A DNA stretch of 64,000 bases, taken from the NCBI GenBank assembly GCA_029212785.1, contig JARGOG010000004.1, positions 1-64,000 of the forward strand, read 5' to 3'. The position numbers and the translations under genes were made by a program. The DNA is from Thalassobaculaceae bacterium (GTDB taxonomy: Bacteria > Pseudomonadota > Alphaproteobacteria > Thalassobaculales > Thalassobaculaceae). Of this stretch, positions 10,953 to 42,590 are shown piece after piece (within the stretch, counting starts at the first letter, position 1; the number at the start of each line of letters is the position of its first letter). Under the pieces are notes generated by a model. It searched no databases. It was not told the DNA's origin and was given only the letters and a program-made list of their open reading frames with translations.

Positions 10953-10982
10953 GCCCCGACCACTGTGAATAAGGAGCAGATG

Positions 10983-20070: not shown

Positions 20071-22512
20071 ATGGGCGTGCCAAAGCAAGCGCGGGTCGTG
20101 ATCATCGGCGGCGGCGTGATCGGCTGTTCGGTGGCGTATCACCTGGCGCGGCAGGGATGGCGGGACATCGTCCTGCTGGAGCGCAAGTCGCTGACCTCCG
20201 GTACCACTTGGCATGCCGCCGGGCTGATCGCCCAGCTTCGTGCGAGCAAGAACATGACCCGACTGGCGAAATACAGCCAGGAGCTCTACGGCGCCCTGGA
20301 GGAGGAGACCGGCGTGGCGACCGGGTTCCGGCGGACCGGTTCGATTTCCGTCGCTCTGACGCAGGAACGCCTTGAAGAGTTGAAGCGTCAGGCCTCGATG
20401 GCCCGGGCCTTCGGGGTCGAGGTCGAAGGTATCGGTCCCGACGAGATCAAGCGCCGCTACGACCCGCTCAACATCGAGGGCGTGCTGGGGGGCGTCTATC
20501 TGGCGAAGGACGGGCAGGGCGATCCGGCCAACATCGCCCACGCGCTCGCCAAGGGCGCGCGGCAGCAGGGCGCGACCATCCTTGAGCGGGTCAAGGTGAC
20601 GGGGTTCGAGACAGTCGGGCGTCGGGTTTCAGGCGTGGCCTGGGAAAGCGAGACCGAGCGCGGAACCGTCGCCGCTGAGATGGTGGTGAACTGTGCGGGC
20701 ATGTGGGCGCACGAGGTCGGGCGCATGGCCGGGGTCAATGTCCCGCTGCATGCCTGCGAGCATTTCTACATCGTCACCGAAGCGATCCCGGAGCTTACCA
20801 AGCTGCCGGTGCTGCGGGTGCCGGACGAGTGCACCTATTACAAGGAGGATGCCGGCAAGCTGCTGGTCGGCGCTTTCGAGCCGGTGGCCAAGCCCTGGGG
20901 CATGGCAGGCATTCCCGACAGCTTCGAATTCGACCAGTTGGCCGAGGATTTCGACCATTTCGAACCGATCCTGGAGGCGGCGACCAACCGCATGCCGATG
21001 CTTGCCTCGGCCGGAGTACAGACCTTTTTCAACGGCCCGGAGAGCTTCACTCCGGACGACGCCTATCACCTCGGGCAGGCGCCGGAGATGGACAATGTCT
21101 GGGTGGCGGCCGGCTTCAATTCGATCGGTATCCAGTCGGCGGGCGGGGCGGGCATGGCGCTGGCGGCCTGGATGACGACCGGCGAGAAACCGTTCGACCT
21201 CGGCGACGTCGACATCGCCCGCATGCAGCCGTTCCAGGGCAACCGCTCCTACCTCTTCGCCCGCGCCAAGGAGAGCCTGGGCCTGCTCTATGCCGATCAT
21301 TTCCCCTATCGCCAGAAGACGACGGCCCGCGGAATCCGCCGCTCGCCCCTGCATCACCAGTTGATCGAGCAGGGGGCGGTGATGGGTGAGTTCGCCGGAT
21401 GGGAACGGGCGAACTGGTTCGCCGATCCGGGGCAGGAGCCGTCCTACCGTTATAGCTGGAAACGCCCGAACTGGTTCGAGAACGCGGCGCGTGAGCATCG
21501 GGCAATCCGCGAGGGCGTCGGGCTCTACGACATGAGCTCCTTCGGCAAGATCCGCATCGAGGGGCCGGATGCCGAGGCGTTCCTCAACCACGTCTGCGGC
21601 GGCGACATGAGCGTGCCGGTGGGCAGGATCGTCTATACTCAGATGCTGAACCGGGGCGGCGGGATCGAGGCCGACGTGACGGTCACCCGCCTCAGCGACA
21701 TCGCGTATCTCATGGTGACCCCGGCGGCGACCCGGCTGGCGGAACAGACCTGGCTGCGCCGTCATCTGGGCGAGCACCGGGTGGTGCTGACCGACGTGAC
21801 CAGCGGCGAGGCGGTGCTCGCGGTGATGGGGCCGAAGGCGCGCGCGTTGATGCAGGCGGTGTCCCCGAACGACTTCGGCAACACGGTCAACCCGTTCGGT
21901 ACCGCCCAGCGGATCGATATCGCCATGGCCCAGGCTCGGGTGCACCGGATCACCTATGTCGGCGAACTCGGCTGGGAAATCTATGTGCCGAGCGAATTCG
22001 CCGGCCATGTCTTCGAGACGCTGCTCGAGGCCGGTGCGGATGTCGGCTTGACGCTGTGCGGTCTCCACGTGATGGACAGTTGCCGGATCGAGAAGGCGTT
22101 CCGCCATTTCGGCCATGACATCACCAGCGAGGATAACCCGATTGATGCCGGTCTCGGCTTCGCGGTGAAGACGGCGAAGCCGGACTTCATCGGCCGCGAC
22201 GCGGTGCTCAAGCGCCGGGACAGCGGTCCGCTCTCCCGGCTGGTGCAGTTCCGTCTGACCGATCCGGAACCGTTGCTCTATCACGCCGAGCCGATCCTGC
22301 GGGACGGCGAGGTCGTCAGCTATCTGACATCGGGCGCCTATGGCCATGCCCTGGGAGGCGCCATGGGCATGGGCTATGTGCCCTGCGCGGGGGAAAGCGG
22401 TGCGCAGGTTCTGGCGTCGCGCTATCAGATCGAGGTCGCCGGTAGCCTGGTCGATGCCGAGGCGTCGTTGCGACCGATGTATGATCCGAAATCGGAGCGG
22501 GTGAAGGTCTGA
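20071..22512 (+). CDS. Dimethylglycine/sarcosine dehydrogenase-like flavoprotein (DAO + GcvT domains)
   Basis: An 813-residue two-domain demethylase. Residues 1 to about 380 form a D-amino-acid-oxidase-type FAD domain: RVVIIGGGVIGCSVAYHLA near 8-26 and TTWHAAGL near 45-52, where His48 matches the covalent FAD histidine of dimethylglycine and sarcosine dehydrogenases. Residues about 430-813 form a GcvT/aminomethyltransferase domain that passes the one-carbon unit to tetrahydrofolate. The enzyme oxidatively removes an N-methyl group from an amine such as dimethylglycine, sarcosine or a methylated amino acid; exact substrate unresolved. The ATG at 20071 follows GAGAGGAGAG. It is co-transcribed with the XRE-cupin gene just upstream. 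Confidence 0.9.
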   Translation: MGVPKQARVVIIGGGVIGCSVAYHLARQGWRDIVLLERKSLTSGTTWHAAGLIAQLRASKNMTRLAKYSQELYGALEEETGVATGFRRTGSISVALTQERLEELKRQASMARAFGVEVEGIGPDEIKRRYDPLNIEGVLGGVYLAKDGQGDPANIAHALAKGARQQGATILERVKVTGFETVGRRVSGVAWESETERGTVAAEMVVNCAGMWAHEVGRMAGVNVPLHACEHFYIVTEAIPELTKLPVLRVPDECTYYKEDAGKLLVGAFEPVAKPWGMAGIPDSFEFDQLAEDFDHFEPILEAATNRMPMLASAGVQTFFNGPESFTPDDAYHLGQAPEMDNVWVAAGFNSIGIQSAGGAGMALAAWMTTGEKPFDLGDVDIARMQPFQGNRSYLFARAKESLGLLYADHFPYRQKTTARGIRRSPLHHQLIEQGAVMGEFAGWERANWFADPGQEPSYRYSWKRPNWFENAAREHRAIREGVGLYDMSSFGKIRIEGPDAEAFLNHVCGGDMSVPVGRIVYTQMLNRGGGIEADVTVTRLSDIAYLMVTPAATRLAEQTWLRRHLGEHRVVLTDVTSGEAVLAVMGPKARALMQAVSPNDFGNTVNPFGTAQRIDIAMAQARVHRITYVGELGWEIYVPSEFAGHVFETLLEAGADVGLTLCGLHVMDSCRIEKAFRHFGHDITSEDNPIDAGLGFAVKTAKPDFIGRDAVLKRRDSGPLSRLVQFRLTDPEPLLYHAEPILRDGEVVSYLTSGAYGHALGGAMGMGYVPCAGESGAQVLASRYQIEVAGSLVDAEASLRPMYDPKSERVKV

Positions 22513-25099: not shown

Positions 25100-26431
25100 G
25101 TGACCGTTTCCGACCCCTGCCGTCTGACGGCCGGTGAGGCCTCTGCTGCCATGGCAGCGGGCGACCTCACCGCCGTCGCCCTGCTGACCGCCTGCCTGGA
25201 CCGGATCGACACCCGCGATCCCGCGGTCCGCGCCTGGCTCTACGTGGCCCGCGAGAGCGCTCTGGCCGACGCCCGAAGACTGGACGTGGAACGCCGGAGC
25301 GGCAGGGTGCGCGGTCCACTGCACGGCATCCCCATTGCGCTGAAAGACGTCATCGACGTCGCCGGCATGCCCGGAACCCATAACTCGCCGCTGCATGAGG
25401 GCCGGGTTCCGGTCGACGATGCCGGCTGCGTCGCCTTGATGCGTGCGGCGGGGGCGATCCCGCTCGGCAAGCTGGACACGGTGGAGTTCGCCGCCCTTGG
25501 CCGGCTACCGAAGACCGTCAATCCGCATCGGCTCACCCATACCGCCGGCGGATCATCGAGCGGGTCCGGCGCGGCCGTCGGCGATCTGCAGGTGCCGATC
25601 AGTTTCGGCACCCAGACCGGCGGATCGGTCATGCGGCCGGCCTCCTATTGCGGCACCTATGCGATGAAGCCGACCTGGGGCGTGGTCAGCCGGGAAGGGG
25701 CCAAGCTGTTCGCCGCCAGCCTGGATACCATCGGCTGGTATGCCCGTTCGGTCGGGGATCTGCGTCTCGTGGCGGCGGCCAGCGGCATCGCCGACGGCTC
25801 CGGGACGCGGCGGGAGGTATCGACGCTGCGGATCGCGCTCTGCCAGACCCCTTATGCCGATAGGGCCCGCGATGGGGCTCTGACCGTGTTGACCCGCGCC
25901 GCCGACGCGCTGAAGGCGGCCGGGGCTACGGTCGAGAGATTGGAACTTCCGACGTCCTTCGCCGAGATCGACGATGCCAAGGACACGATCATGCGCGGCG
26001 AGGGTAGGGCGGCATTCCTGCCGGCACTCCTGACCCGCGGCGAGGAGCTGCACGACACACTGCGCGGCATTGCCGAATTCCGCTCCGGCATCACGCCGAT
26101 GACGCTGAAAGCGGCTCAGGATTTCGCCGGTCACGCGCGCATGGCCTATGAGGGCCACTACCGTGGTTATGACGCCGTGCTGACATTCGGTGCGACCGGG
26201 GAGGCGGATGGCGGGCTGGAGAGCACCGGCAATTCGGTCTTCAACTCGCTGTGGACCCTGCTGCACCTGCCGGTGATCGGCCTGCCGGCGGGCGACGGGC
26301 CGACCGGCCTGCCGATCGGTGTGCAGCTCGTCGGCTTCCGCTACGCCGACGACACCCTGCTGGATGTCGCCGCGGCGGCGGCGCCGGTGATCGATCCGTG
26401 GTGCGGCAAGGTGCGCGTCCCGGCCGGGTGA
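25100..26431 (+). CDS. Amidase signature family hydrolase
   Basis: A 443-residue amidase-signature enzyme. The Ser-cisSer-Lys triad is visible: Lys82 in PIALKDVID, the cis-serine in AGGSSSGSGAA (residues about 152-154) and the nucleophile Ser176 in QTGGSVMRPAS. The family covers amidases, allophanate hydrolase N-domains and GatA; the length and lack of gatB/gatC neighbours favour a catabolic amidase. The GTG start at 25100 has only a weak upstream ribosome-binding site. It lies 97 bases after the helicase, with a GACCGG...CCGGTC hairpin in between (25003-25022), and converges on the PuuE-type hydrolase. It may act on an amide produced by the adjacent island, but lies outside the mapped operators. 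Confidence 0.87.
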   Translation: MTVSDPCRLTAGEASAAMAAGDLTAVALLTACLDRIDTRDPAVRAWLYVARESALADARRLDVERRSGRVRGPLHGIPIALKDVIDVAGMPGTHNSPLHEGRVPVDDAGCVALMRAAGAIPLGKLDTVEFAALGRLPKTVNPHRLTHTAGGSSSGSGAAVGDLQVPISFGTQTGGSVMRPASYCGTYAMKPTWGVVSREGAKLFAASLDTIGWYARSVGDLRLVAAASGIADGSGTRREVSTLRIALCQTPYADRARDGALTVLTRAADALKAAGATVERLELPTSFAEIDDAKDTIMRGEGRAAFLPALLTRGEELHDTLRGIAEFRSGITPMTLKAAQDFAGHARMAYEGHYRGYDAVLTFGATGEADGGLESTGNSVFNSLWTLLHLPVIGLPAGDGPTGLPIGVQLVGFRYADDTLLDVAAAAAPVIDPWCGKVRVPAG

Positions 26432-26450: not shown

Positions 26451-27344
26451 TCATGACCCTGGAACCGTCCCCGCCGGAAGGCCGGCGCAGTACGAGGCGA
26501 TCTCGCCCGGTGTGGTCAGCCAGATCTCGTCGCGGTGCTGCAGGATGTGCGTCATCGCGCGGCGCAAGGCGCGCAGGCGGTAGGGCTGGCCGATGATGAA
26601 CGGGTGCAGCACGGCGGTATAGACCAGCGGCCGCTTCTTCGACTGATGCAGCATCTCGTCGAACTGGTCGATCATCATCCGCTCGAACTCCTCGCCGGCA
26701 TGCTGGCGGAACACCAGGGCCGGGCTGTCGTTCAACTCGATGGAATAGGGGACGGAGAGGATCCGGTCCTTGCGGGTGCGCATCCAGAACGGCTGGTCGT
26801 CGGCCGGCCAGTCCATCACGTAGTCGTAGCCCGCCTCTTGCAGCAGATCGAGGGTGACCGGCGTTTGCGCCAGGTACGGGCCGAGCCAGCCGCGGGGGGC
26901 GGTGCCGAAGAACCCGGTCAGCGCGTCCGTCGTCTCCTTGATCAGCGCCGCTTCGCCGGCTTCGTCCAGCACGTCCTGGCGCTCGGAGTTGGTCCGCCCA
27001 TGGCCGACGACCTCGTCGCCGCGCTGTTTGATGCGTTCGAGGATCTGCGGGCAGTGCTCGACCAGCAGGGAGTTCAGGTTGTGCGAGGCCGGGACCTGCA
27101 TCTCGTCGAACAGGTCGAACAGGTACCACTGGCCGACCCGGTTGCCGTAGTCGCGCCAGGAGAAGTTCCGCGTGCTCTGCGCAGCCCCCAAGGTGGCGCT
27201 GTCGGAACCGAGCCCTTCGAGAAACGAGAAGACCTCGATATTGTTGCAGAAGCATACGGCGAGGCGCTTGCCTTCCGGCCAGTCATAGACCGGGCGGGCG
27301 TCGAGCGGGCTGAAGTCGTAGCGATCATGGGCGGCGAGTTTCAT
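26451..27344 (-). CDS. Polysaccharide-deacetylase-fold hydrolase, PuuE/cyclic-imidase type (copy 1)
   Basis: A 297-residue protein of the PuuE-like branch of the polysaccharide deacetylase fold, which includes metal-independent allantoinase. Shared landmarks are DYGNRVGQWYLFDLFD near residues 66-80, the single motif-2 histidine His115 in EVVGHGRTNS, DWPADDQPFWMRT near 170, PYSIELND, and VLHPFIIGQPYR near 250. The classical NodB Asp-His-His metal set is not complete, so sugar N-deacetylation is unlikely; ring opening of a cyclic imide or ureide is a better guess. The ATG at 27344 is preferred; a TTG at 27383 would add 13 non-conserved residues. It faces an isochorismatase-type amidase across operator site A. 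Two further copies lie at 40771 and 41685. Confidence 0.82.
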   Translation of the reverse strand: MKLAAHDRYDFSPLDARPVYDWPEGKRLAVCFCNNIEVFSFLEGLGSDSATLGAAQSTRNFSWRDYGNRVGQWYLFDLFDEMQVPASHNLNSLLVEHCPQILERIKQRGDEVVGHGRTNSERQDVLDEAGEAALIKETTDALTGFFGTAPRGWLGPYLAQTPVTLDLLQEAGYDYVMDWPADDQPFWMRTRKDRILSVPYSIELNDSPALVFRQHAGEEFERMMIDQFDEMLHQSKKRPLVYTAVLHPFIIGQPYRLRALRRAMTHILQHRDEIWLTTPGEIASYCAGLPAGTVPGS

Positions 27345-27402
27345 GGGCTTGAACCGGCGTCTGGGGTTGCGGAATGTTGACAAGCGAGGCGTTCAGATCG
27401 TC

Positions 27403-27416
27403 AACTGTCAACAGTT
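27403..27416. promoter_or_regulatory. Operator site A (AACTGTCAACAGTT palindrome)
   Basis: A perfect 6-base inverted repeat AACTGT-N2-ACAGTT lies in the 104-base gap between the divergent PuuE-type hydrolase and isochorismatase-type amidase. Its core TGTCAACAGTT recurs at 34213-34223 and 39788-39798. A further TTGACA at 27377 may be a -35 element. Likely bound by the GntR/FCD regulator at 37342. Confidence 0.65.
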
Positions 27417-27448
27417 TTTGGGGTCAATTGGAACACTTGGAGGGTCAC

Positions 27449-28156
27449 ATGCATCCCTGGACCGGCACAATCACCGAAGATGAGGAAAGCCGGTACGACG
27501 CGGCCGGCTTCGGCCGGCCGAGCGGCATTGGCCGGCGCCCGGCGCTGCTGATCATCGATGTGCAGTACCGCACCGTCGGCACCGTGCGCCGGCCCTATTG
27601 GGACGCGATCAAGGAATATCCGACCGCATGCGGCGATGTGGGCTGGGCTGCGGTCGACAACATCCGTCCGCTGCTCGCCGAGTTCCGCCGCCTGAACCTG
27701 CCGGTGCTGTACCCGCATGTGGCGCCGAAGAACGTCGACACGGATTCCGGTCGCCTGGCGGAAAAGGTGCCGGCGATCATGACCGTCGACGCCAAAGGTT
27801 ATGAGTTCGTGGCGGAAGTCGCGCCGGTGAAAGGCGACGTCCTGCTGCCGAAGAAGCACCCCAGCGCTTTCTTCGGCACACCGCTGGTCAGCCACCTGAT
27901 CGACCTCGGCGCCGATACGCTGTTCGTCACCGGCTGCACGACGAGCGGCTGCGTACGGTCCTCCGTCACCGACGGGTTCGCCTATAACTTCAAATGCGTG
28001 GTGCCGCAGGAATGCGTGTACGACCGCTCGCCGACCAGCCATGCGGTCAATCTGTTCGACATGAATGCCAAATATGCCGACGTGATGCCGACAGCCGATG
28101 CCCTCGCGCTGCTGAAGGGGCTGGAAGGCGGCGTCGACCGCGCCGCCGGCGCGTGA
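27449..28156 (+). CDS. Isochorismatase-fold amidohydrolase (N-carbamoylsarcosine / maleamate amidase-like)
   Basis: A 235-residue cysteine hydrolase of the isochorismatase fold. The catalytic triad is visible as Asp37 (LLIIDVQ), Lys135 or Lys136 (LLPKKHPSAFFGT) and Cys168 (TGCTTSGCVRSS). The SAFFGT and GCTTSGCVR signatures and NLFDMNAKYADV near the C-terminus are those of N-carbamoylsarcosine amidase and maleamate amidohydrolase (NicF), which release ammonia from a carbamoyl or half-amide. The ATG at 27449 follows GGAGGG; upstream frame from 27374 crosses operator A. It starts an operon with MmgE/PrpD (8 bases on) and an FAD enzyme. A half-amidase acting after an imidase is the natural reading. 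Confidence 0.85.
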   Translation: MHPWTGTITEDEESRYDAAGFGRPSGIGRRPALLIIDVQYRTVGTVRRPYWDAIKEYPTACGDVGWAAVDNIRPLLAEFRRLNLPVLYPHVAPKNVDTDSGRLAEKVPAIMTVDAKGYEFVAEVAPVKGDVLLPKKHPSAFFGTPLVSHLIDLGADTLFVTGCTTSGCVRSSVTDGFAYNFKCVVPQECVYDRSPTSHAVNLFDMNAKYADVMPTADALALLKGLEGGVDRAAGA

Positions 28157-28163
28157 CGGCGTG

Positions 28164-29558
28164 ATGGACGATGCGCCCCTGAGCGACGATGCCGCCCGCC
28201 GGATCGTCGCCGGCCTCGATGCGCTGACCCGCTGGGCCGCCGGTCTGACTTTCGAGGCGATCCCCGAGGCGATCCGGGTCCGTGCCGCCACCGTGCTGGC
28301 CGACGATCTCGCGGCCATCGTCGCCGCCCGCGACGAGCCTGAACTGATCGGCCTGACGGACGGGCTGGTCCGGTCGTCTGGGGCGGGCGAGGCGACGGTG
28401 TTCGACGGACGCGGCACCCGGCTCGATCGGTATTCCGCCGCCACCGCCAACGGCAGCGCCGCCGACTGGTGCGAGCTGGACGAAGGCTATCGCCGGGTGA
28501 TCTGCCACGCCGGTTTGTACTGCGTGCCGGCCCTGCTGGCCGAGGCGGAAGCGACCGGGGCAACCGGGCGGGAATTGCTCAGGGCGCTCGCCATCGGCTA
28601 CGAGATCGCCGGACGCGTCGCCCGGGCCTTCGGCTATCCGACCCTCACCCTGCATCCCCATGGCAGCCTCGCGGCGGTCGGTGCCGCCGCGTCGGTCGCC
28701 GCCCTGCGGCATCTCTCCGCCGATGAGATGGCCAAGGTGATCTCCACCGCTTGTACCCTCGTGGTGCCGGGGCCGTTCAATCATACGGTCGAGGGCGCGC
28801 TGGTGCGCAACGTGTGGCCGGGCGTGGGGGCATGGAGCGGGCTGCGCGCCGTCGACTGGACGCTCTGCGGCATCACCGGACGGCCGGAAAGCCTGCACGA
28901 CGTCTATGCCAGCGCCTTCGGAGGGGAGCCGCATCCGGGCGAGCTGACCGAGGGTCTCGGGTCCGACTGGGCGCTGTCGGACGGTTATCACAAGCTCCAC
29001 GCCTGCTGCCAGTATGCCCACTCCGCGGTGGAGGCCAGCCTGGCGCTCGCCGCCCGGGCCGACGCCGGGTCCATCCGGGCGATCCATATCGATACCCATT
29101 GGAAGGGCCGGCACCTGGACAACGCAGCACCGGCCACGACGCTGGCAGCGAAGTTCTCGATGCAGCACATCCTGGCGGCGACGGCGCGGTTCGGACATGC
29201 CGGTGCCGAGGCCTTCCATGCCTCGACGCTGACCGAGCCGGCGGTCGCAGACCTGCGGGAACGGGTGACCATAGGCGCCTACGATCCCGAGCCGGAATGG
29301 CCGAACGACCGTCCGGCCCGGGTGACCTGGGTGCTGTCCGACGGCGCGCGGGTGACCGAGGAGTGCCTGAGCGCCCGTGGAGGTCCGGACCGGCCCTTCG
29401 CCCCGTCGGAGGTCCGGGCCAAGATCCGCGGCATCGTCGATGCTCCCTACCCGGCGATGGGCGATGTCCTCGAGCGTCTGCTGGCGCTGGATAGCGGCGA
29501 GCTCGACCGGACCTGGGATCGTACGGTGGCCGCCATGACCGGTGCGGCCGGAGGGTGA
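28164..29558 (+). CDS. MmgE/PrpD family protein (second, diverged copy)
   Basis: A 464-residue MmgE/PrpD-family protein, recognised by its length, helical N-terminal half, and SAATANGSAADWCELDEGYR near residues 93-112 where the family normally has a substrate-binding Asp-rich loop, followed by TLHPHGSLAAVGAAASVAAL near 162-181. The family dehydrates or isomerises tri- and dicarboxylates. The ATG at 28164 is chosen over a GTG three bases earlier. The stop overlaps the start of the FAD enzyme (GTGA), so both are coupled to the upstream amidase gene. Little identity is apparent with the copy at 1003, so the two probably have different substrates. Confidence 0.82.
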   Translation: MDDAPLSDDAARRIVAGLDALTRWAAGLTFEAIPEAIRVRAATVLADDLAAIVAARDEPELIGLTDGLVRSSGAGEATVFDGRGTRLDRYSAATANGSAADWCELDEGYRRVICHAGLYCVPALLAEAEATGATGRELLRALAIGYEIAGRVARAFGYPTLTLHPHGSLAAVGAAASVAALRHLSADEMAKVISTACTLVVPGPFNHTVEGALVRNVWPGVGAWSGLRAVDWTLCGITGRPESLHDVYASAFGGEPHPGELTEGLGSDWALSDGYHKLHACCQYAHSAVEASLALAARADAGSIRAIHIDTHWKGRHLDNAAPATTLAAKFSMQHILAATARFGHAGAEAFHASTLTEPAVADLRERVTIGAYDPEPEWPNDRPARVTWVLSDGARVTEECLSARGGPDRPFAPSEVRAKIRGIVDAPYPAMGDVLERLLALDSGELDRTWDRTVAAMTGAAGG

Positions 29559-30916
29559 TCGTGACGTCTGAGGTGGATACCGACCTGTTGGTGATCGGCG
29601 CCGGCGCCTGTGGTCTGGCGGCGGCCGTCGCGGCCCATGATGCCGGGATTTCGGTCGCTGTCGTCGAGAAGCTGGCCCGTCCCGGTGGCAACTCGTCCCT
29701 CAGCACCGGATCGGTGCCGGGGGCGGGAAGCCGGTTCCAGCGCGAGGCGGGGATCGAGGACTCGCCCGAGCGACTGGTGACCGACCTGCTCGCCACAGCC
29801 GGCCCGCACGACGCCGACGCCCTGACCCGGCGCATGGCCGAGGAGTCGGCGCCGTTGGTCGAGTGGCTGATCGACGAACTCGGTGCGCGCATGGAACTCG
29901 TTACCGCCTACAAGCATGTGGGCCACAGCGTGCCGCGCCTGCACGCCCCGCGGTCACGGCGGGGCCAGGACCTGGTGGATGATCTTTTAGGCTTCGTTTC
30001 CGACCGGGGCATTCCGCTGGCCGTCGGTAATCCGGTCGATCGCCTGCTGATGGAGGATGGGGCGGTCCGGGGAGCGGTGATCGCCGGCGAGCCGGTGCGC
30101 GCGGCGAAGGTGCTGCTGGCGACCAACGGCTTCGCGGCGAACCGCTCGATGGTGGCGCGCTGGTGCCCGGAGATCGCACCGGCGGAGTATTTCGGCGCGC
30201 TCGGCAGCACTGGCGAGGCGGCCGCCTGGGGCGAGGCGATCGGTGCCGCGCTCGGCAACATGGGCGCCTATCAGGGCTATGCCGCCGTCGCCTATCCCCA
30301 GGGGAGTCTGCTGTCCTGGACCACGATCGAGAAGGGCGGGATCCTGGTTTCGGCCAGCGGACGGCGTTTCGGTAACGAGGATGCGGGCTATTCCGGGTTC
30401 GCGCCGACGGTCATGGGCCAGGGCGAGACCGCCTACGCGGTCTACGACCGGCGGATCCATGACATCGCGGCCGGGGAAGAGGAGTATGTCGAACTGGCTG
30501 AGATGGGTGGGGTCCGTTGGGCCGACACGCCGCAAGGGCTGGCCGACCACATGGCCGTCGACGGCGCCGCATTGGCCGAGACGGTGGACGCCTATAATGG
30601 GGCGGCCCGGGGCGGTCGGTCGGATGCCTTCGGTCGGCGCAGGTTCGAGCTCGCACCGCTGCAGGCGCCGTTCGCCATCGTGCGGGTGAAGCCGGGCCTG
30701 TTCCACACACAAGGCGGGCTGATGGTTGACGACCATGCCCGCGTACTGCGTCCGGACGGCTCGGTCGTCGCCAACCTGTTCGCCGGTGGCGGCGCCGCGG
30801 CCGGGATCAGCGGACTGAGCGGGGCCGGAGGCTATGCGTCCGGAAACGGGCTGCTCACCGCATTGGCGCTGGGCCGGATCGCCGGATTGTGCGCGGCTGA
30901 CGAACTGAGCGGCTAG
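29555..30916 (+). CDS. FAD-dependent oxidoreductase, fumarate reductase/tricarballylate dehydrogenase-like
   Basis: A 453-residue FAD_binding_2 flavoprotein. The dinucleotide motif LLVIGAGACGLAAAVAAHDAG is at residues 10-30, RPGGNSSLSTGSVPGAG near 42-58, and the C-terminal FAD contact GISGLSGAGGYASGNGLL near 425. Length matches tricarballylate dehydrogenase TcuA rather than the longer ketosteroid dehydrogenases. Members introduce or reduce C=C bonds in dicarboxylates or cyclic ketones. The GTG start at 29555 overlaps the MmgE/PrpD stop and follows CGGAGGG. Coupled to an amidase and PrpD-type protein, it could interconvert a succinate and a maleate/fumarate-type intermediate. No heme- or FeS-binding domain is fused. 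Confidence 0.82.
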   Translation: MIVTSEVDTDLLVIGAGACGLAAAVAAHDAGISVAVVEKLARPGGNSSLSTGSVPGAGSRFQREAGIEDSPERLVTDLLATAGPHDADALTRRMAEESAPLVEWLIDELGARMELVTAYKHVGHSVPRLHAPRSRRGQDLVDDLLGFVSDRGIPLAVGNPVDRLLMEDGAVRGAVIAGEPVRAAKVLLATNGFAANRSMVARWCPEIAPAEYFGALGSTGEAAAWGEAIGAALGNMGAYQGYAAVAYPQGSLLSWTTIEKGGILVSASGRRFGNEDAGYSGFAPTVMGQGETAYAVYDRRIHDIAAGEEEYVELAEMGGVRWADTPQGLADHMAVDGAALAETVDAYNGAARGGRSDAFGRRRFELAPLQAPFAIVRVKPGLFHTQGGLMVDDHARVLRPDGSVVANLFAGGGAAAGISGLSGAGGYASGNGLLTALALGRIAGLCAADELSG

Positions 30917-33028: not shown

Positions 33029-34054
33029 TCAACGGCCGAGCCACTCGTGCCACTTGGCGGAGACCTGCTTGGCTTCCTCGCCGAGACCGCGGCTTTCCAT
33101 GTCCGCGGCCCATTCGGCCAGAAGGTCGGGGGCGGCCGCTTTCCACTTGGCGAGCTCTGCGGGCGGGAATTCCTTGACCACGCCGCCGGCCGCCTGGATG
33201 TCCTCAAGCGCCTTGTTCTCGAAGGCGTCGATCCACTCCAGGTACTCCTGCTGGCTGGCCTTTGACTCTTCCACGAAGATCGCCTGGGTTTCCGGGGTCA
33301 GCTTTTCCCATGCGCGCTTGCTGATGGTGATCAGGTGACCGGTGATCGCCGCGACCGGGCCGCAGTTGAACTTGCCCGGCTCGTAGAAGCGGTTGGTGAC
33401 GATGTTGCCCGCGTTGATGAACGAGTAGTCCAGCGTGCCGCGCTGTAGGGCTTCGTAGATGTCACCGACGCCGATGGAGACCGGCACCGCACCGACCGCC
33501 GCGTGCAGCTTCGGAATGTCGGCGCCGAAGCTGCGGATCTTCTTGTCCTTCAGGCCGGCAACCGTGTCGCAATTCCCGTCCGGGCCGGTCAGGAAGTACT
33601 GGCCGAGCGGCTGGTGGAACAGGAACTTGACGTTGAACTTGTCCAATTCCGCGCTGAACATCGGCAGTTCGGCGAAGGAGTTGCGCGACAGCGTCATCGC
33701 CTCGGCCGGCGTGTCGAACACGAACGGGATCTGGAAGGCACGGATGAACAGCAGCTGATCGGCGTAGTAGCCCGGCACCACCGAGGCCATGTCGATCGCG
33801 CCGCGACCCGCGAGAGTCATCAACTCGTTGCCCTTGCCGAGGCCGCCCGCGTAGGTGATGTCGATCTTCACCTTGCCGCCAGTCCGCTCCTCGATCTTCT
33901 TGGCGAAATTCTGTTCGACTTCGAGGAAGGCGCTGTTCGGCAGATAGTGGCCCCAGCGCAGGGTCACCTCGTCCTGGGCGAGTGCGCTGCCCGCCATGCC
34001 GAGTGACGCCGCTACCGCAGCGCCCTTGATCAGTGTTCCGAGATACTTGTTCAT
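33029..34054 (-). CDS. dctP: TRAP transporter substrate-binding protein (DctP family)
   Basis: A 341-residue periplasmic protein. A signal peptide covers residues 1 to about 26 (ending AGSALA), and the mature part starts QDEVTLRWGHYLPN. DctP landmarks include FAKKIEERTGGKVKI near 50-64 and LKDKKIRSFGADIPKLHAAVGA near 168-189, where the arginine usually binds the substrate carboxylate. DctP proteins bind organic acids, lactams or related carboxylated molecules. It is the first gene of the minus-strand TRAP operon; its start is 156 bases from operator site B, shared with the divergent nitroreductase-methyltransferase gene. The ligand is unknown but should be the island's substrate. Confidence 0.93.
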   Translation of the reverse strand: MNKYLGTLIKGAAVAASLGMAGSALAQDEVTLRWGHYLPNSAFLEVEQNFAKKIEERTGGKVKIDITYAGGLGKGNELMTLAGRGAIDMASVVPGYYADQLLFIRAFQIPFVFDTPAEAMTLSRNSFAELPMFSAELDKFNVKFLFHQPLGQYFLTGPDGNCDTVAGLKDKKIRSFGADIPKLHAAVGAVPVSIGVGDIYEALQRGTLDYSFINAGNIVTNRFYEPGKFNCGPVAAITGHLITISKRAWEKLTPETQAIFVEESKASQQEYLEWIDAFENKALEDIQAAGGVVKEFPPAELAKWKAAAPDLLAEWAADMESRGLGEEAKQVSAKWHEWLGR

Positions 34055-34209: not shown

Positions 34210-34223
34210 GTCAACTGTTGACA
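34210..34223. promoter_or_regulatory. Operator site B (GTCAACTGTTGACA) over a -35 box
   Basis: Between the divergent dctP and nitroreductase-methyltransferase genes lies GTCAA-CTG-TTGAC, a perfect inverted repeat whose reverse complement contains the same TGTCAACAGTT core as sites A and C. TTGACA at 34218-34223 can act as -35 for the rightward gene with a weak -10 (CCTATC) 17 bases on. A TGTCAAC half-site recurs at 34247-34253. Confidence 0.68.
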
Positions 34224-34303
34224 TTTTTCCGCCCCGCCACCCTATCTGTCAACGCCTCGTCCGCAGGGGTAGTCTACGGAAACTTCGTCATAGGAGAACA
34301 GGA

Positions 34304-35671
34304 ATGGATGACGCGCGCACGCGTCCGCATTCTTCGGAGGATCACGCGGTCGAGGACTGGCGCCGGATCCTGGGCATTCTGGCCGACCGACGGTCATGCC
34401 GGGACTTCGATGGAACGCCGATGGATCGGGAGGTTCTGGCCGAGATCGTGCGCGACGGCATGCAGGCGCCGTCGTCGTGCAACCAGCAGCAATGGCACTT
34501 CATCATCATCGACGACCGCGACCTGCTGCAGCGGGCCCATGACATCTCCGGCGGCAATCACCATTTCGCCGAATGTTCGGCCCTCGTGTATCTCTGTTTT
34601 CAGAAGGGTTGGACCCACGGCAATTTCTCCGTCGTCCAGTCGGTCGCCGGCGCCTGCTATCACATGATCCTGAGCGCTCATCTGCGCGGTTACGACACGA
34701 TCTGGAATGCCGGGATCGGCGACAATCAGGCGCTGGCCGAGCTGTTCGGCGTGCCGCCGGTGTTCGAGATCATGGGCGCGCTGGCGATCGGTCGGGCGCG
34801 GCCGACGGCACCGGCCATGAAGGCGCCACGCCGCCCGTTCGACGAGGTGCATTCCTGGAACGGCTTCACCCGACCCGCGCACACCCTCTATCCGGTGAAG
34901 CCGGCCAAGGCCTATCCGTATTTCGAGATCAGCAACGCCGCCAACCCGTTCGCCGTATGGGATCCCCGCGGCTGGAGCTGGAAGTCGATGGGCGATTTCC
35001 GAGGCTATGCGGTCTGGGCGAAATCGCCGCTGGCCGGGGTCTACGTCTCGCGCCGCCAGGGCGAGGCGACGGCGGCCGAACTCGACCTGCTGCCGGAGAT
35101 GGGGCCGGGATCGACAGTGGTCGAGCTGATGCCCTGGGGCGGCACCTATAGCGCGGAGATCCGACGGCGGCTCGATCCCGGCGTGGAGCTGCGCCTGGCG
35201 GAGCTGTCGGAGAGCAATCTCTCCTTTGTGATGGAACGCCTGCACCGCGAGGGCTTCGCGATGGAGCGCACCAAGGGGGATGTGATCGCCGGTCCGGCGC
35301 TACCCTATGCGGATGCGAGCGTGGATGCGGTCGTGCTGCCTCAGGTGCTGGAGCAGATGCCCGAGGCGGAGGCGATGCTCGACGAGGTGCGGCGGGTTCT
35401 CAAGCCGGGTGGCAGCGCGGTGGTCAGCGTGCGCAATCTCGATTCCGAGTATGGCGACCATTGGAGCGAGGTGGAATCCCGGGGGTGTATCCCGAACCAG
35501 GGACCGTTCACGCCACTGTCGGCGGAGACCGTCAGGAAATGGCTCGCCGCCCGCTTCACACCCGATCTGGAGCAGGGCATCGGCACTGCGGTCAGCCACG
35601 ACGCCACCATCGTCATCGATGATGGGCGATATGGCTGCCGCCTCTATGCCGGGCGCTGGCACGCGGCCTGA
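34304..35671 (+). CDS. Nitroreductase - SAM methyltransferase fusion protein
   Basis: A 455-residue fusion. Residues about 20-175 are an FMN-dependent nitroreductase domain: ILADRRSCRDFDGTPMDREV near 25-44, MQAPSSCNQQQWHFIII near 53-69, and IMGALAIGRARPTAP near 159-173, the usual FMN and phosphate contacts. After a linker of about 60 residues, about 240-440 is a class I methyltransferase-like domain with a modified motif I, STVVELMPWGGTYSAEI near 269-285, and a DEVRRVLKPGGSAVVSVRNL stretch near 360-380. The motif I form resembles the ExxPGGGWYT subgroup of methyltransferases. Either dehydrogenation or dehalogenation coupled to methylation, or one active and one scaffold domain, is possible. 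The single frame shows no sign of an assembly join. The gene faces the TRAP operon over operator B. Confidence 0.8.
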   Translation: MDDARTRPHSSEDHAVEDWRRILGILADRRSCRDFDGTPMDREVLAEIVRDGMQAPSSCNQQQWHFIIIDDRDLLQRAHDISGGNHHFAECSALVYLCFQKGWTHGNFSVVQSVAGACYHMILSAHLRGYDTIWNAGIGDNQALAELFGVPPVFEIMGALAIGRARPTAPAMKAPRRPFDEVHSWNGFTRPAHTLYPVKPAKAYPYFEISNAANPFAVWDPRGWSWKSMGDFRGYAVWAKSPLAGVYVSRRQGEATAAELDLLPEMGPGSTVVELMPWGGTYSAEIRRRLDPGVELRLAELSESNLSFVMERLHREGFAMERTKGDVIAGPALPYADASVDAVVLPQVLEQMPEAEAMLDEVRRVLKPGGSAVVSVRNLDSEYGDHWSEVESRGCIPNQGPFTPLSAETVRKWLAARFTPDLEQGIGTAVSHDATIVIDDGRYGCRLYAGRWHAA

Positions 35672-37067: not shown

Positions 37068-37306
37068 CGTCGTGTCTCCGTCATGTGCTTATGTGCATCC
37101 GCCCGTGTGCGGCGGGGATTGTTTCTTGAATTGCCGAACCCGTGGTCACCCCAGCGGTGCCGTTCCGCCCCCCGGGATGCTGGCGCAAATTGTTGGCGAC
37201 AACGCCATAGGACGTGGCAATCTTACCCTCCAAAGGGAGACTGCAACGCAGGTGCGCGGGTAAATCGGCGCATTTGCGCGTAGAATGACAATCAAGCCGG
37301 GCGGGC

Positions 37307-37315
37307 TCAACTGTC
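37307..37315. promoter_or_regulatory. Half-operator in front of the GntR gene
   Basis: TCAACTGTC, the left half of the AACTGTCAACAGTT palindrome, lies 27 bases before the GntR GTG start in the 274-base gap shared with the divergent cyclic amidohydrolase. The right half is not conserved. It could allow weak autoregulation. Confidence 0.35.
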
Positions 37316-37341
37316 CGGCGACAGGCTGAGGAATCAAGGCT

Positions 37342-38028
37342 GTGGCCACGACCGACGCGATGCAACCGCTCACGTCCATGAACCTCTCGGCGCTTGCGTT
37401 CGAGCGGTTGGAACACGCGATCATGTCCGGCGAGCTGAAGCCGGGCGAGCGGCTGTCGGAGGTGACGCTGGCGCGGCGCTACGGCATCAGCCGCGGCCCG
37501 CTGCGCGAGGCGATCGGTCGCCTGGAGGGCCGCAACCTGGTCGAGCGTCAGGCCAATCAGGGCGCGCGCGTGGTTTCTCTCGATCAGTCCCAGATCCTCG
37601 ATCTCTTGGTGATCCGCGAAGGGTTGGAGGGGATGGCATGCCGTCTGGCGGCGACGCGGATGAAGCCGGCGGAGCTGAAGCGGTTGCAGCGCATGCTGGA
37701 CGACCATGCCGAGGACGAGCGGGTGAAGTCCGGCCAGGGGTATTTCCAGGGCGGTGGAGATCTCGATTTCCACTACCGGATCGTGCGGGCCAGCGGTAAC
37801 GACCGGCTGATCAAGATGCTGGACGAGGACCTGTACTCGCTGCTGCGTCTGTTCCGTCAGCGTCTGAGCACGGTGCCCGGCCGCCCGGCCCAGGCGCTGG
37901 AGGAGCACCGCGCGGTGCTGGCGGCGCTGGAGGCGCGCGATCCCGACGCGGCGGAAGCGGCGATGCGCACGCATATCCGCAACAGCCGGGCCAGCATCAA
38001 CCATCTGGTCACCACCGACGTCGCCTGA
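37342..38028 (+). CDS. GntR family transcriptional regulator (FadR/FCD subfamily)
   Basis: A 228-residue regulator with a GntR winged helix at about 16-78 (AFERLEHAIMSGELKPGERLSE, then ARRYGISRGPLREAIGRLEG) and an all-helical FCD effector domain at about 85-215, including the metal/ligand His-rich positions DLDFHYRIVRASGN and EEHRAVLAALEARD. FCD regulators usually sense carboxylic acids and bind short inverted repeats near -35 boxes. The GTG at 37342 has no strong ribosome-binding site. It lies in the centre of the island whose three divergent promoters share the TGTCAACAGTT core, and is the best candidate for the protein that binds it. Confidence 0.9.
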   Translation: MATTDAMQPLTSMNLSALAFERLEHAIMSGELKPGERLSEVTLARRYGISRGPLREAIGRLEGRNLVERQANQGARVVSLDQSQILDLLVIREGLEGMACRLAATRMKPAELKRLQRMLDDHAEDERVKSGQGYFQGGGDLDFHYRIVRASGNDRLIKMLDEDLYSLLRLFRQRLSTVPGRPAQALEEHRAVLAALEARDPDAAEAAMRTHIRNSRASINHLVTTDVA

Positions 38029-38038
38029 CGGTCGCCGT

Positions 38039-38368
38039 TCAGGCCGTCGGCACATCGTTGATCGGAATGTCGACGTCGAGCATCGGCGCGTGCTGTTGGC
38101 AGCCGTAGACGTCGGTATCGCCGAGATCGCCCGCCGGAATCGCCCGCGGGATCGTCGCTTTGAACGCCAGCCCCGCCGGATAGGGCGTGAACAGCACATC
38201 CTCCTCCGCGACGTCATACAGCCTGGCGATCAGCGCCGGGGTCAGCACCCCGGTCGCCGCCACTGCGTCGTAGGCGGCGCGGGTCTCGAACACCACGTCG
38301 ATGGTCAATTGGAACGGGCCGGCGTTCTTCGACTTGCAGACCTTGGCGATATCGCGGATCCGGGCCAT
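38039..38368 (-). CDS. DUF4387 protein (AtuA-associated small subunit)
   Basis: A 109-residue protein matching the small DUF4387 family, starting MARIRDIAKVCKSKNAGPF and containing YDVAEEDVLFTPYPAGLAFKATIPR. The family is almost always encoded next to AtuA/DUF1446 proteins and is probably their partner subunit. The ATG at 38368 shares a base with the stop of the AtuA-like gene (TGATG); a GTG three bases earlier is the alternative. Biochemical function is unknown. Confidence 0.82.
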   Translation of the reverse strand: MARIRDIAKVCKSKNAGPFQLTIDVVFETRAAYDAVAATGVLTPALIARLYDVAEEDVLFTPYPAGLAFKATIPRAIPAGDLGDTDVYGCQQHAPMLDVDIPINDVPTA

Positions 38369-39784: not shown

Positions 39785-39825
39785 AACTGTCAACAGTTGA
39801 CGATATTATCCGGCGCCGCTGTAAT
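39785..39825 (+). promoter_or_regulatory. Operator site C overlapping a sigma-70-type promoter for the C-C lyase gene
   Basis: AACTGTCAACAGTTGAC (39785-39801) joins both palindrome forms seen at sites A and B. Its end overlaps a good rightward promoter, TTGACG (39797-39802), a 17-base spacer and TGTAAT (39820-39825), about 50 bases before the ATG at 39877. Binding here would block RNA polymerase, so repression relieved by an inducer is predicted. The opposite strand offers TTGACA for the AtuA gene. Confidence 0.72.
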
Positions 39826-39876
39826 CCCATCGGGCATCGTGTCCCCAAAGAGCAAGGACCGGGAGGTACCAAACCA

Positions 39877-40758
39877 ATGACGACGCTTGTTGATCGCCGA
39901 CGAGAATTCCGGGCGATGCTGGAGAAACGGCGTGCCGTTCTGGTCCCGGGGGCGGCGAACGCGCTGACCGCCCGGGTGATTGAGGACCAGGGTTTCGAGG
40001 CCTGTTACGTCACCGGAGCGGGGATTGCCAACACTCTGCTCGGCGTCCCGGACATCGGTCTGGTCACCATGAGCGAGATCCAGTCGACGGTGGCGGCGAT
40101 CGCCGAGATCAGCAGCCTGCCGCTGGTGGTCGATATGGATACCGGCTTCGGCAACGCGATCAACACTCACCGTACCGTGCGGGTACTGGAGCGGGCCGGG
40201 GCCTGCGCGGCCCAGATCGAGGACCAGGTCTTCCCGAAGAAATGCGGCCATTTCGACGGCAAGGGCGTGATTCCCGCGAAGGAGATGGCGGCCAAGGTGC
40301 GCGCCGCCGCCGAGGCGCGGGAGGACGAGAACTTCCTGATCATCGCCCGCACCGATGCCCGCGCCGTCGAAGGTATGGACGCGGCCATGGAGCGCGCGAA
40401 TCTGTACATCGAGGCCGGCGCCGACGTGACCTTCGTCGAGGCGCCGACCTCGGTCGAGGAGATGAAGCGGATCTGTACTGAGCTGCCGGTGCCGCAGGTG
40501 GCGAACCTGGTGGTCGGCGGGCGCACGCCGATGCTGCCCCAGGAGGAACTGGCGGCGCTCGGCTTCGCGATCGTGCTCTATGCCAACACGCCGCTGCAGG
40601 CCGCCATGCGGGCGATGAGCGAGGTGCTGGGCGCGCTCAAGCGCGACGGCAATCTCGACGCGGTCCAGGACCGGCTGGCCGACTTCGTCGAGCGTCAGCG
40701 CCTGGTGCACAAATCCACGTATGACGCCATGGAGAAGCACTATGCGGTCGATGAATAG
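39877..40758 (+). CDS. Isocitrate lyase/PEP mutase superfamily C-C lyase (2,3-dimethylmalate/methylisocitrate lyase-like)
   Basis: A 293-residue TIM-barrel protein of the ICL/PEPM superfamily. It has the Mg2+-binding DMDTGFGNA near 87-95, IEDQVFPKKCGHF near 115-127 with the catalytic Cys of the K-K-C-G-H lyase motif, and FLIIARTDAR near 152-161. The Cys motif marks a true C-C bond lyase, as in methylisocitrate lyase and 2,3-dimethylmalate lyase, which yield pyruvate or a fatty acid plus a second acid. The ATG at 39877 follows GGGAGG. It begins an operon with two PuuE-type hydrolases and an isochorismatase-fold amidase, and its promoter overlaps operator C. Cleavage of a branched malate-type end product is likely. 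Confidence 0.85.
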   Translation: MTTLVDRRREFRAMLEKRRAVLVPGAANALTARVIEDQGFEACYVTGAGIANTLLGVPDIGLVTMSEIQSTVAAIAEISSLPLVVDMDTGFGNAINTHRTVRVLERAGACAAQIEDQVFPKKCGHFDGKGVIPAKEMAAKVRAAAEAREDENFLIIARTDARAVEGMDAAMERANLYIEAGADVTFVEAPTSVEEMKRICTELPVPQVANLVVGGRTPMLPQEELAALGFAIVLYANTPLQAAMRAMSEVLGALKRDGNLDAVQDRLADFVERQRLVHKSTYDAMEKHYAVDE

Positions 40759-40770
40759 GAAGGTGTCTGA

Positions 40771-41688
40771 ATGAACTTCGCCCCTGAGGACCGCGCTCCA
40801 TATTCGGCGATCGCCGACCGTCCGCGCCTGACATGGCCGAACGGCGCGAAGGTCGCCGTCTGGGTGGTGCCGAATGTCGAGCATTACGAGTTCCTGCCGC
40901 GGCCGTCGCGGGTGCGTGATCCCTGGCCGCGCTCGCCCCATCCCGATGTGCTCGGCTACGGCGTGCGGGATTACGGCAACCGGGTCGGTCTGTGGCGGAT
41001 GATGGAGGTGATGGACGCCCACGGCGTGCGCGGCACCCTCTCGCTCAGCATGTCGAATTTCGTCCATTACCCGGAGATCTTCGAGGCGTGCGAGGCCCGC
41101 AAGTGGGCGATCATGTCCCACGGCATGTACAACACGCGCTACCACTGGGAATACTCCGAACAGGAGGAGCGAGACGCGATCCACGAGAGCATGGATCTGC
41201 ACACCAAACTTACCGGCCGCAAGCTCAAGGGCTGGTTCTCACCGGCGGCGTCCTGGACCTTCAACACGCCGGACCTCGTGGCCGAGGCGGGGATCACCTA
41301 CTACTGCGACTGGTATCACGACGATCAGCCGTTCCCGATGCGCACCCGCTCGGGCAAGACGCTGGTCACCGTTCCCTACACGATGGAGCTGAACGACGCG
41401 GTGCTGTACCGCCACCAGTTCGAGGCGCAGGACTTCGCCAACTGGACCTGCGACGCGTTCGACACCCTGTATCGCGAGGGGGAGCAGCAGCCGCGGGTGC
41501 TGTGTCTGGCCCTTCACCCCTACATCTTCGGCCATCCGCACCGGATCAAACATCTGGAGCGCACGCTCGCCTATATCTGCGGTCACGACGACGTCTGGGT
41601 TACCACCGGCGAGGAGATCGCCGACTGGTACATCGCCAACCATCTCGACGCGATGAAGGCCCATCTCGGCTGGGAGGACGCGCAATGA
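40771..41688 (+). CDS. Polysaccharide-deacetylase-fold hydrolase, PuuE/cyclic-imidase type (copy 2)
   Basis: A 305-residue PuuE-type protein, clearly paralogous to the one at 26451. It retains the active-site landmarks: VEHYEF near 36-41, DYGNRVGLWRMMEVMD near 67-82, His117 in WAIMSHGMYNTR, CDWYHDDQPFPMRT near 180, PYTMELND near 203, and LALHPYIFGHPHRI near 245. It should be the catalytic member of the tandem pair with the following gene. The ATG at 40771 follows GGAAGGTG; its stop overlaps the next ATG as ATGA. Opening of a cyclic imide or ureide is inferred from PuuE allantoinase and reported imidases of this fold. Confidence 0.83.
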   Translation: MNFAPEDRAPYSAIADRPRLTWPNGAKVAVWVVPNVEHYEFLPRPSRVRDPWPRSPHPDVLGYGVRDYGNRVGLWRMMEVMDAHGVRGTLSLSMSNFVHYPEIFEACEARKWAIMSHGMYNTRYHWEYSEQEERDAIHESMDLHTKLTGRKLKGWFSPAASWTFNTPDLVAEAGITYYCDWYHDDQPFPMRTRSGKTLVTVPYTMELNDAVLYRHQFEAQDFANWTCDAFDTLYREGEQQPRVLCLALHPYIFGHPHRIKHLERTLAYICGHDDVWVTTGEEIADWYIANHLDAMKAHLGWEDAQ

Positions 41689-42590
41689 CCGATCCGCGGC
41701 CCGGCATGGACCACGCGCTCTATCCCTATTCTGCCATCAACCGGCGCCCGGCGTTGTCCTGGCCCGAAGGCAACGGGCTCGCCTTCACGGTCGTCCTGCA
41801 CCTGGAATTCTGGCGTCTGGATCCGCCGAAGGAGGATTGGCGCGACCCACGCTATCAGGGCGCGTTCGGCAATTTCTATCCGGACTACACCGCCTTCACC
41901 CAGCGCGAATACGGCAACCGCGTCGGCATCTTCCGGGTGCTCGACCTGCTCGACCGGTTCGACCTGAAGCTGACGGTCCCGGCCAACGCGGCGGCCCTGG
42001 AACGCTATCCGGGCATCGTCGAGCGGCTGAAGGACCGCAAGGTCGAATTCGTCGCCGCCGGGACCCATGCCGACCGCATGATCACCTCGAAGATGGATGC
42101 CGACGCCCAGCGCTGGATGATCGATGAAAGCATCGAGACGGTCGAGCGGTTGACCGGCACCCGGCCGACCGGATGGGCCGGCCCCGGCTATGGCGAGAGC
42201 GAGATCACCGCGGGTCTCCTGGCGGAGGCCGGGCTGGAGTATGTGATGGATTGGCCGAATGACGACCAGCCTTACATGCTGCGGACCGAGCCGGGCCTTG
42301 TCTCCATCCCGCGCCAGCCGGAATGGGATGACGGCGAGATCATGTGGCTGCGCAAGGTCCCGCGCGAGCTGTGGTCGGAAATGGCGGTCTCCGCCTTCGA
42401 AGGGCTCTACGAGGAGCGGGCGGCCGGGCGCTATTTCGCGCTGTCCCTGCACCCCTGGGTCGTCGGCCAGACCCACCGCATCCGCTATCTGGCCGAAACG
42501 CTGGAGAAGATCGCCCCGCCCCGGGCGGGCGTGTGGCAGACCACCGCCGGCGACGTCGCCCGTCACTTCCGGTCCCAGATCGCGGACTGA
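41685..42590 (+). CDS. PuuE-type deacetylase-fold protein, degenerate active site (copy 3)
   Basis: A 301-residue paralogue of the preceding gene, translationally coupled to it (ATGA). The fold landmarks remain (EYGNRVGIFRVLDLLD near 75-90, DWPNDDQPYMLRT near 190, LSLHPWVVGQTHRI near 260), but two probable active-site elements are changed: the conserved His of the HG motif is Ala125 in FVAAGTHADR, and PYxxELND has become PRQPEWDD. It may be a non-catalytic partner of copy 2, or have shifted substrate. Length and frame are intact, so it is not a pseudogene. Confidence 0.8.
   Translation: MTDPRPGMDHALYPYSAINRRPALSWPEGNGLAFTVVLHLEFWRLDPPKEDWRDPRYQGAFGNFYPDYTAFTQREYGNRVGIFRVLDLLDRFDLKLTVPANAAALERYPGIVERLKDRKVEFVAAGTHADRMITSKMDADAQRWMIDESIETVERLTGTRPTGWAGPGYGESEITAGLLAEAGLEYVMDWPNDDQPYMLRTEPGLVSIPRQPEWDDGEIMWLRKVPRELWSEMAVSAFEGLYEERAAGRYFALSLHPWVVGQTHRIRYLAETLEKIAPPRAGVWQTTAGDVARHFRSQIAD

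What the first reader, a model, noticed from the sequence alone, without database searches (positions are those of the whole stretch)
34304..35671. Nitroreductase fused to a SAM methyltransferase-like domain
One continuous frame joins an FMN nitroreductase domain (about 20-175) and a class I methyltransferase-like domain (about 240-440) with an atypical motif I, VVELMPWGGTYS. I know of no characterised enzyme with this architecture. Its operator-linked position opposite the TRAP importer suggests it acts first on the imported molecule, for instance reduction or dehydrogenation coupled to methylation or to radical/flavin chemistry.
Basis: partly seen in the sequence, partly recalled or inferred. 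Interest (0 to 1): 0.68.

Follow-up and report, generated by a model that had tools for sequence, protein, structure and literature searches.

The report
Fused flavin oxidoreductase–methyltransferase enzyme family
A single bacterial protein that joins a flavin-dependent redox enzyme to a methyltransferase-type domain is real and conserved in dozens of species, and it sits under one regulatory switch with an uncharacterised pathway that probably breaks down an imported ring-shaped nitrogen compound.

Summary
One 455-aa frame (34304-35671, +) encodes an FMN nitroreductase-fold domain (residues about 14-195), a conserved bridge, and a class I methyltransferase-fold domain (about 222-455). It is not an assembly join: 37 loci from alphaproteobacterial genomes (plus one Pseudomonadales MAG) carry the fusion at 50-82% identity. 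Both halves are under purifying selection and diverge in step. No unfused intermediates were found (fused copies score above 400 bits, the next methyltransferases about 44). AlphaFold2 (pLDDT 86) and VIA-align place both folds at Z about 20. The unusual motif I is a family signature: two of the three glycines of GxGxG are replaced by Met/Leu and an invariant Trp, while both acidic positions are kept. Actual SAM binding is therefore open. The gene shares an operator with the divergent TRAP importer; the exact palindrome GTCAACnGTTGAC occurs at only two places in the 4.9-Mb genome, both in this cluster. The regulon has 15 or more genes (allantoinase-like and PuuE-like hydrolases, isochorismatase, amidase, PrpD-like, PrpB-like, fumarate-reductase-like flavoprotein) and looks like catabolism of a cyclic imide or N-heterocycle. 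Substrate, reaction order and the need for methylation remain inferred. This is a new domain architecture in known superfamilies.

The parts
34304..35671 (+). NTR-MT fusion gene, 455 aa
34343..34888 (+). FMN nitroreductase-fold domain, residues about 14-195; family signature APSSCNQQxWHF ... GGNxHF ... FQKGWTHxNxS
   Evidence: Pfam PF00881; Z 19.7 to cyclodipeptide oxidase 9exv and 19.4 to 3ge5
34889..35098 (+). conserved bridge and N-terminal cap of the methyltransferase domain, residues about 196-265 (NPFAxWxPxxWxW ... VWAKSPxxGVYxSRR)
   Evidence: W238, K240 and R251 invariant in 26/26 sequences, Y235 24/26 Y; aligns with GYAxWW...YSQR of stand-alone methyltransferases
34967..35668 (+). class I methyltransferase-fold domain, residues about 222-455
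   Evidence: Z 20.0 to TM1293 (1vlm), also CmoM and SpnF; PF08241
35117..35152 (+). variant motif I VVELMPWGGTYS (residues 272-283); Trp278 at the second Gly of GxGxG
   Evidence: W278 and G280 26/26, E274 E/D 26/26; alignment to MitM and 3bus
34210..34222 (.). operator palindrome GTCAACTGTTGAC with a further half-site TGTCAAC at 34247-34253, between dctP and the fusion gene
   Evidence: conserved upstream of the orthologues in most loci
39789..39801 (.). second exact operator, between atuA and the prpB-like gene
27400..27412 (.). degenerate operator GTCAACTGTCAAC between the PuuE-like and isochorismatase genes
   Evidence: same position in relatives
33029..34054 (-). TRAP solute-binding protein DctP
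   Evidence: PF03480
32399..32944 (-). TRAP DctQ
   Evidence: PF04290
31078..32388 (-). TRAP DctM
   Evidence: PF06808
35676..37067 (-). cyclic amidohydrolase (allantoinase/dihydropyrimidinase-like)
37342..38028 (+). GntR/FCD regulator, likely reader of the operator
   Evidence: PF00392 and PF07729
38039..38371 (-). DUF4387 protein
   Evidence: PF14330
38368..39783 (-). AtuA (PF07287) protein
39877..40758 (+). PrpB-like lyase (methylisocitrate/dimethylmalate lyase family)
40771..41688 (+). PuuE-like hydrolase 1
41685..42590 (+). PuuE-like hydrolase 2
26451..27383 (-). PuuE-like hydrolase 3 (the copy most often kept with the fusion)
27449..28156 (+). isochorismatase-family amidohydrolase (best solved match 3ot4)
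   Evidence: start inferred from the operator at 27400
28161..29558 (+). MmgE/PrpD-family protein
29555..30916 (+). FAD_binding_2 / flavocytochrome c-like dehydrogenase or reductase
25100..26431 (+). amidase (AtzE-like)

Best explanation
A bifunctional enzyme made by one ancient gene fusion. Its N-terminal nitroreductase-fold domain binds FMN and moves a hydride to or from a ring bond of a cyclic amide or N-heterocycle. Its C-terminal class I methyltransferase domain, with a Trp-modified SAM loop, adds a methyl group to the same molecule. It is induced with the importer through a GntR/FCD operator and prepares the imported compound for the downstream enzymes. These would be ring opening by the allantoinase-like and PuuE-like hydrolases, release of ammonia by the isochorismatase and amidase, then redox, hydration and C-C cleavage by the FAD_binding_2, PrpD-like and PrpB-like enzymes. 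Shown here: the fusion, both folds, conservation, selection, operator and co-located gene cluster. Inferred: FMN and SAM binding, the shared substrate, the order of steps, control by this GntR protein, and that the substrate is an imide or N-heterocycle.
For: Fusion intact at 50-82% identity in 37 loci and in other relatives. Both domains under purifying selection. Distances of the two halves correlate, r 0.856, 0 of 5000 permutations reach it. Fold matches at Z about 20 for each domain; the top NTR match by Z is a cyclodipeptide oxidase (9exv, 27% identity), which dehydrogenates cyclic amides (PMC11760959, PMC11055893), although many NTR rows are tied. Acidic SAM-site positions kept (E274, E300) plus an invariant cap Trp (W238). 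Cluster of hydrolases and C-C lyase conserved across genera. The exact operator occurs only in this cluster genome-wide and is conserved in relatives. The importer is replaced by an ABC system in Microvirga while the fusion and PuuE-like genes stay.
Against: Two of the three motif I glycines are replaced, one by an invariant Trp, so SAM binding is uncertain. SAM-dependent methylation in catabolism is costly and unusual. In Afifella (L054) the fusion sits with a different gene set (ABC importer, FAA hydrolase, SDR) without the PuuE/PrpB/PrpD cluster nearby, so the pathway link is not absolute. No substrate is known.
Confidence: 0.5

Rival explanations
1. The C-terminal domain is a methyltransferase-fold module that no longer transfers methyl groups. 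It binds substrate, or SAM/SAH structurally, and serves the flavin domain as a lid or scaffold, as some methyltransferase-fold proteins do (SpnF is a cyclase).
For: GxGxG replaced by M-P-W-G-G in nearly every member, with Trp at the middle glycine 26/26. SpnF is among the fold matches, Z 18.8.
Against: Both acidic SAM-site positions (E274, E300), the third Gly, the LEHMP region and an N-terminal cap like that of stand-alone methyltransferases are kept. dN/dS stays well below 1.
Confidence: 0.27
2. The two domains work on different molecules. The NTR domain is an FMN or quinone reductase feeding electrons to the neighbouring FAD_binding_2 enzyme, and the methyltransferase domain is a separate detoxifying or tagging activity.
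For: NTR relatives include many NAD(P)H:flavin oxidoreductases. A fumarate-reductase-like flavoprotein is in the same cluster.
Against: No close unfused copy of either half was found in relatives, and the bridge is as conserved as the domains, which suggests a need for physical coupling.
Confidence: 0.18
3. Assembly join or chance read-through of two genes.
For: None beyond the unusual architecture.
Against: 37 loci in different genomes, isolates included, carry the same fusion; co-divergence of the halves.
Confidence: 0.01

Closest known systems
Nitroreductase superfamily (PF00881), nearest solved: 3ge5 (P. gingivalis PG0310), 4dn2, and cyclodipeptide oxidases 9exv and AlbA 8uc3
   Same: Fold, RxSxRxF and APSxxNxQxWxF motifs, about 22-28% identity
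   Different: C-terminal methyltransferase domain and family-specific GGNxHF and FQKGWTHxN segments; no CDO-B-like partner gene next to it
BluB (TIGR02476)
   Same: Nitroreductase fold; best NCBIfam name for the N-terminal domain (40 bits)
   Different: Far under the 150-bit cut-off; different gene context
Class I SAM methyltransferases of the Methyltransf_11/UbiE type; nearest folds TM1293 (1vlm) and CmoM
   Same: Rossmann-like fold, acidic positions at the ends of strands 1 and 2, LEHMP-like motif, N-terminal cap
   Different: Motif I is E-x-(M/L)-(P/A)-W-(G/S)-G-T in place of D/E-x-G-x-G-x-G
Other nitroreductase fusions: peroxiredoxin-NTR (4eo3), BluB/CobT2, FbiB
   Same: NTR domain fused to a second enzyme
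   Different: Second domain is not a methyltransferase
Allantoin, cyclic imide and nicotinate (maleamate) catabolic enzymes: PuuE, AllB, isochorismatase-family amidohydrolases
   Same: Neighbouring enzymes belong to these families
   Different: The full gene set, with PrpD-, PrpB- and AtuA-like genes and NTR-MT, matches no pathway known to me, and literature searches found none

Membership tests
Nitroreductase superfamily | PF00881 match above the curated score | tested here: met
   77.4 bits against a cut-off of 23.5
Nitroreductase superfamily | Fold of FMN-bound nitroreductases | tested here: met
   Z 18-20 to many nitroreductase entries, FMN-bound ones among them
Nitroreductase superfamily | Bound FMN | not testable with these tools
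   needs purified protein
BluB 5,6-dimethylbenzimidazole synthase | NCBIfam TIGR02476 equivalog score | tested here: not met
   40.2 bits against 150
Cyclodipeptide oxidase | Adjacent, often overlapping small CDO-B gene (PMC11055893) | tested here: not met
   In the window the neighbours are dctP and an amidohydrolase; in relatives they are transporter, amidohydrolase or PuuE-like genes
Cyclodipeptide oxidase | Covalent cysteinyl FMN (C115 of AlbA) | not tested
   AlbA residue positions were not aligned here
Class I SAM methyltransferase | Rossmann-like methyltransferase fold | tested here: met
   Z 20.0 to 1vlm over 198 residues
Class I SAM methyltransferase | GxGxG in motif I | tested here: not met
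   First two glycines are Met/Leu and Trp in all 26 sequences
Class I SAM methyltransferase | Acidic residue at the end of strand 2 (ribose contact) | tested here: met
   E300: E 25, D 1 of 26
Class I SAM methyltransferase | SAM binding and methyl transfer | not testable with these tools
   needs assay
Curated nitroreductase-methyltransferase fusion family | A Pfam or NCBIfam model spanning both domains | tested here: not met
   No such model among the matches shown

The most novel reading that the evidence does not exclude
A single enzyme that couples SAM-dependent methylation with FMN hydride transfer on one substrate, so that methylation activates the ring for reduction or dehydrogenation (or the reverse). 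It would open a so-far unknown, GntR-controlled pathway for cyclic imide or N-heterocycle breakdown in Alphaproteobacteria, using a SAM pocket rebuilt around an invariant tryptophan.
Probability: 0.2. Interest if true: 0.75.

Novelty: new variant of a known kind. Interest (0 to 1): 0.52.

Why it matters
It marks an uncharacterised enzyme family with an unreported domain pairing inside a conserved catabolic cluster found in marine, soil and other Alphaproteobacteria. The regulator, operator, importer and hydrolases are all identified, so the substrate can be found by binding and growth screens. The invariant Trp in motif I gives a direct test of how far a SAM site can be altered.

Tried and rejected
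Assembly artefact: rejected. First structure model from 11 close sequences was poor (pLDDT 62), replaced by a 27-sequence model. Search for unfused close relatives of either half: none in 299 phylum genomes at strict cut-offs except one weak 173-aa NTR hit, and a 400-versus-44-bit gap in close relatives. Plasmid search gave only distant single-domain hits. Several minus-strand ORFs first taken as genes (37081-38217, 39790-41202, 41583-42566) and plus-strand 26535-27380 are antisense to real genes and were dropped. A methyltransferase beside a PuuE-like gene in another genome (L092) proved an ordinary one with a normal motif I (VLEVGVGTG). Literature searches for the architecture or the gene set found nothing relevant. 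Hematinic acid and other tetrapyrrole-derived maleimides were considered as substrate because the gene set would fit chemically; no direct evidence.

Full report
Observation. The frame 34304-35671 (+) is open for 455 residues. Pfam finds Nitroreductase (PF00881, E 1.9e-21) and Methyltransf_11 (E 5e-11) in one protein. No NCBIfam model shown names the whole; the best N-terminal name is BluB at 40 bits against a cut-off of 150. The window lies on a 124-kb contig of a 4.9-Mb genome. The closest named relatives are Thalassobaculum species, e.g. T. litoreum at 82% identity.

Not an artefact. The fusion is full length in relatives of several genera and in 37 loci of named genomes: Thalassobaculum, alpha proteobacterium BAL199, Pseudooceanicola, Roseivivax, Microvirga, Afifella, Tianweitania, Aliihoeflea, Falsigemmobacter and others, plus one Pseudomonadales MAG, at 50-82% identity. 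One copy is cut by a contig end (L057) and one is frame-broken in a MAG (L064). The family is rare and patchy: 2 of 385 sampled genomes of the class. Distances in the two halves correlate (r 0.856; 0 of 5000 permutations reach it), so the halves have travelled together. dN/dS is about 0.03-0.10 for the NTR half and 0.17-0.20 for the MT half. In close relatives, fused copies score above 400 bits with the MT profile and the next proteins about 44.

Structure. With 27 sequences AlphaFold2 gives pLDDT 86 and pTM 0.82. VIA-align places residues 228-455 on class I methyltransferases (TM1293 Z 20.0; CmoM 19.3; SpnF 18.8) and residues 14-195 on FMN nitroreductases (cyclodipeptide oxidase 9exv Z 19.7 with 27% identity; 4dn2 19.5; 3ge5 19.4; rows within 1 Z are tied). 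The segment between the domains, especially VWAKSPLAGVYVSRR, is among the most conserved parts. It lines up with the N-terminal cap of stand-alone methyltransferases of Rubrobacter and Haloterrigena.

Motif I. Aligned to MitM and 3bus, E274 takes the place of the usual Asp/Glu, M276 of the first Gly, W278 of the second, and G280 of the third. In 26 sequences W278 and G280 are invariant, M276 is Met or Leu, and E274 and E300 are acidic throughout. The stand-alone relatives have ELGPGTGYY or EVGPGTGYY there. So the unusual motif is a defining and constrained feature of the fusion family. Whether SAM still binds cannot be decided by these tools.

Surroundings. The conserved neighbourhood contains a TRAP importer (divergent), an allantoinase-like amidohydrolase, a GntR/FCD regulator, DUF4387 with AtuA, a PrpB-like lyase, up to three PuuE-like hydrolases, an isochorismatase-family amidohydrolase, MmgE/PrpD, FAD_binding_2 and an amidase. 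In Microvirga the TRAP is replaced by an ABC importer with a Peripla_BP_6 binding protein. In Afifella the fusion sits with another ABC importer, an FAA hydrolase and an SDR. Closest solved relatives are PuuE allantoinase, the isochorismatase 3ot4/3uao and N-carbamoylsarcosine amidohydrolase (that 3ot4/3uao is the maleamate amidohydrolase NicF is from memory), IRG1 and IDS-epimerase for the MmgE/PrpD protein, and petal death protein and methylisocitrate lyases for the PrpB-like protein.

Operator. A perfect palindrome GTCAACTGTTGAC followed by a half-site lies between dctP and the fusion gene. The pattern GTCAACnGTTGAC occurs at only two sites in the whole genome, 34210 and 39789, both in this cluster; the reversed control pattern has none. 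A degenerate copy is at 27400. The same sites recur upstream of the orthologues in most relatives. This supports one GntR-type regulon containing importer, fusion and hydrolases. The binding of the regulator itself is inferred.

Working model (inferred). The imported compound is a cyclic imide or N-heterocycle. NTR-MT changes its redox state and probably methylates it. The amidohydrolase and PuuE-like enzymes open the ring, the isochorismatase and amidase release ammonia from the half-amides, and PrpD-like and PrpB-like enzymes hydrate and cleave a branched di- or tricarboxylate, with FAD_binding_2 adding or removing a double bond. A PrpB-type lyase needs a 2-methyl malate unit to give pyruvate (general knowledge), which would give methylation a purpose if the substrate lacks that methyl, but this is speculative. 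A maleimide such as hematinic acid would fit the hydrolytic part.

Verdict. A real and conserved new domain architecture in known superfamilies, set in an uncharacterised pathway. Its functional suggestion is plausible in outline but untested, and the intactness of the SAM site is genuinely open.

Noticed in passing
window 27374-27449: The degenerate operator at 27400 lies inside the longest isochorismatase ORF, so the true start is probably 27449.
   Followed up: partly
L018 8938-9000 and L019 8510-8580: The N-terminus of the fusion protein carries variable short repeats (METHAVEAHATED, MEANAVEANAVED) in other Thalassobaculum genomes; this part is disordered in the model.
   Followed up: no
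L064 10001-11298 (same as L027 9073-10370): In this MAG the fusion gene and several neighbours are split over frames, probably assembly errors or decay.
   Followed up: no
L082 4580-5479 (G000 contig C74): A second PuuE-like gene 82% identical to window 26451-27383 sits by another TRAP importer, a D-glutamate cyclase-family protein and an M20 peptidase.
   Followed up: partly
L054 2956-14904: Afifella keeps the fusion and the exact operator but with a different gene set (ABC importer, FAA hydrolase, SDR, FAD_binding_2).
   Followed up: partly
window 10965-14697 and 20071-22512: Hydantoinase/oxoprolinase A and B genes and a dimethylglycine dehydrogenase-like (FAD plus GcvT) gene lie upstream; HydA/HydB relatives flank the cluster in some other genomes.
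   Followed up: no
L070 2911-3582 and L071 2935-3588: Stand-alone methyltransferases with an apparently hydrophobic N-terminus on Rubrobacter and Haloterrigena plasmids share the GYAxWW...YSQR cap with the fusion.
   Followed up: partly
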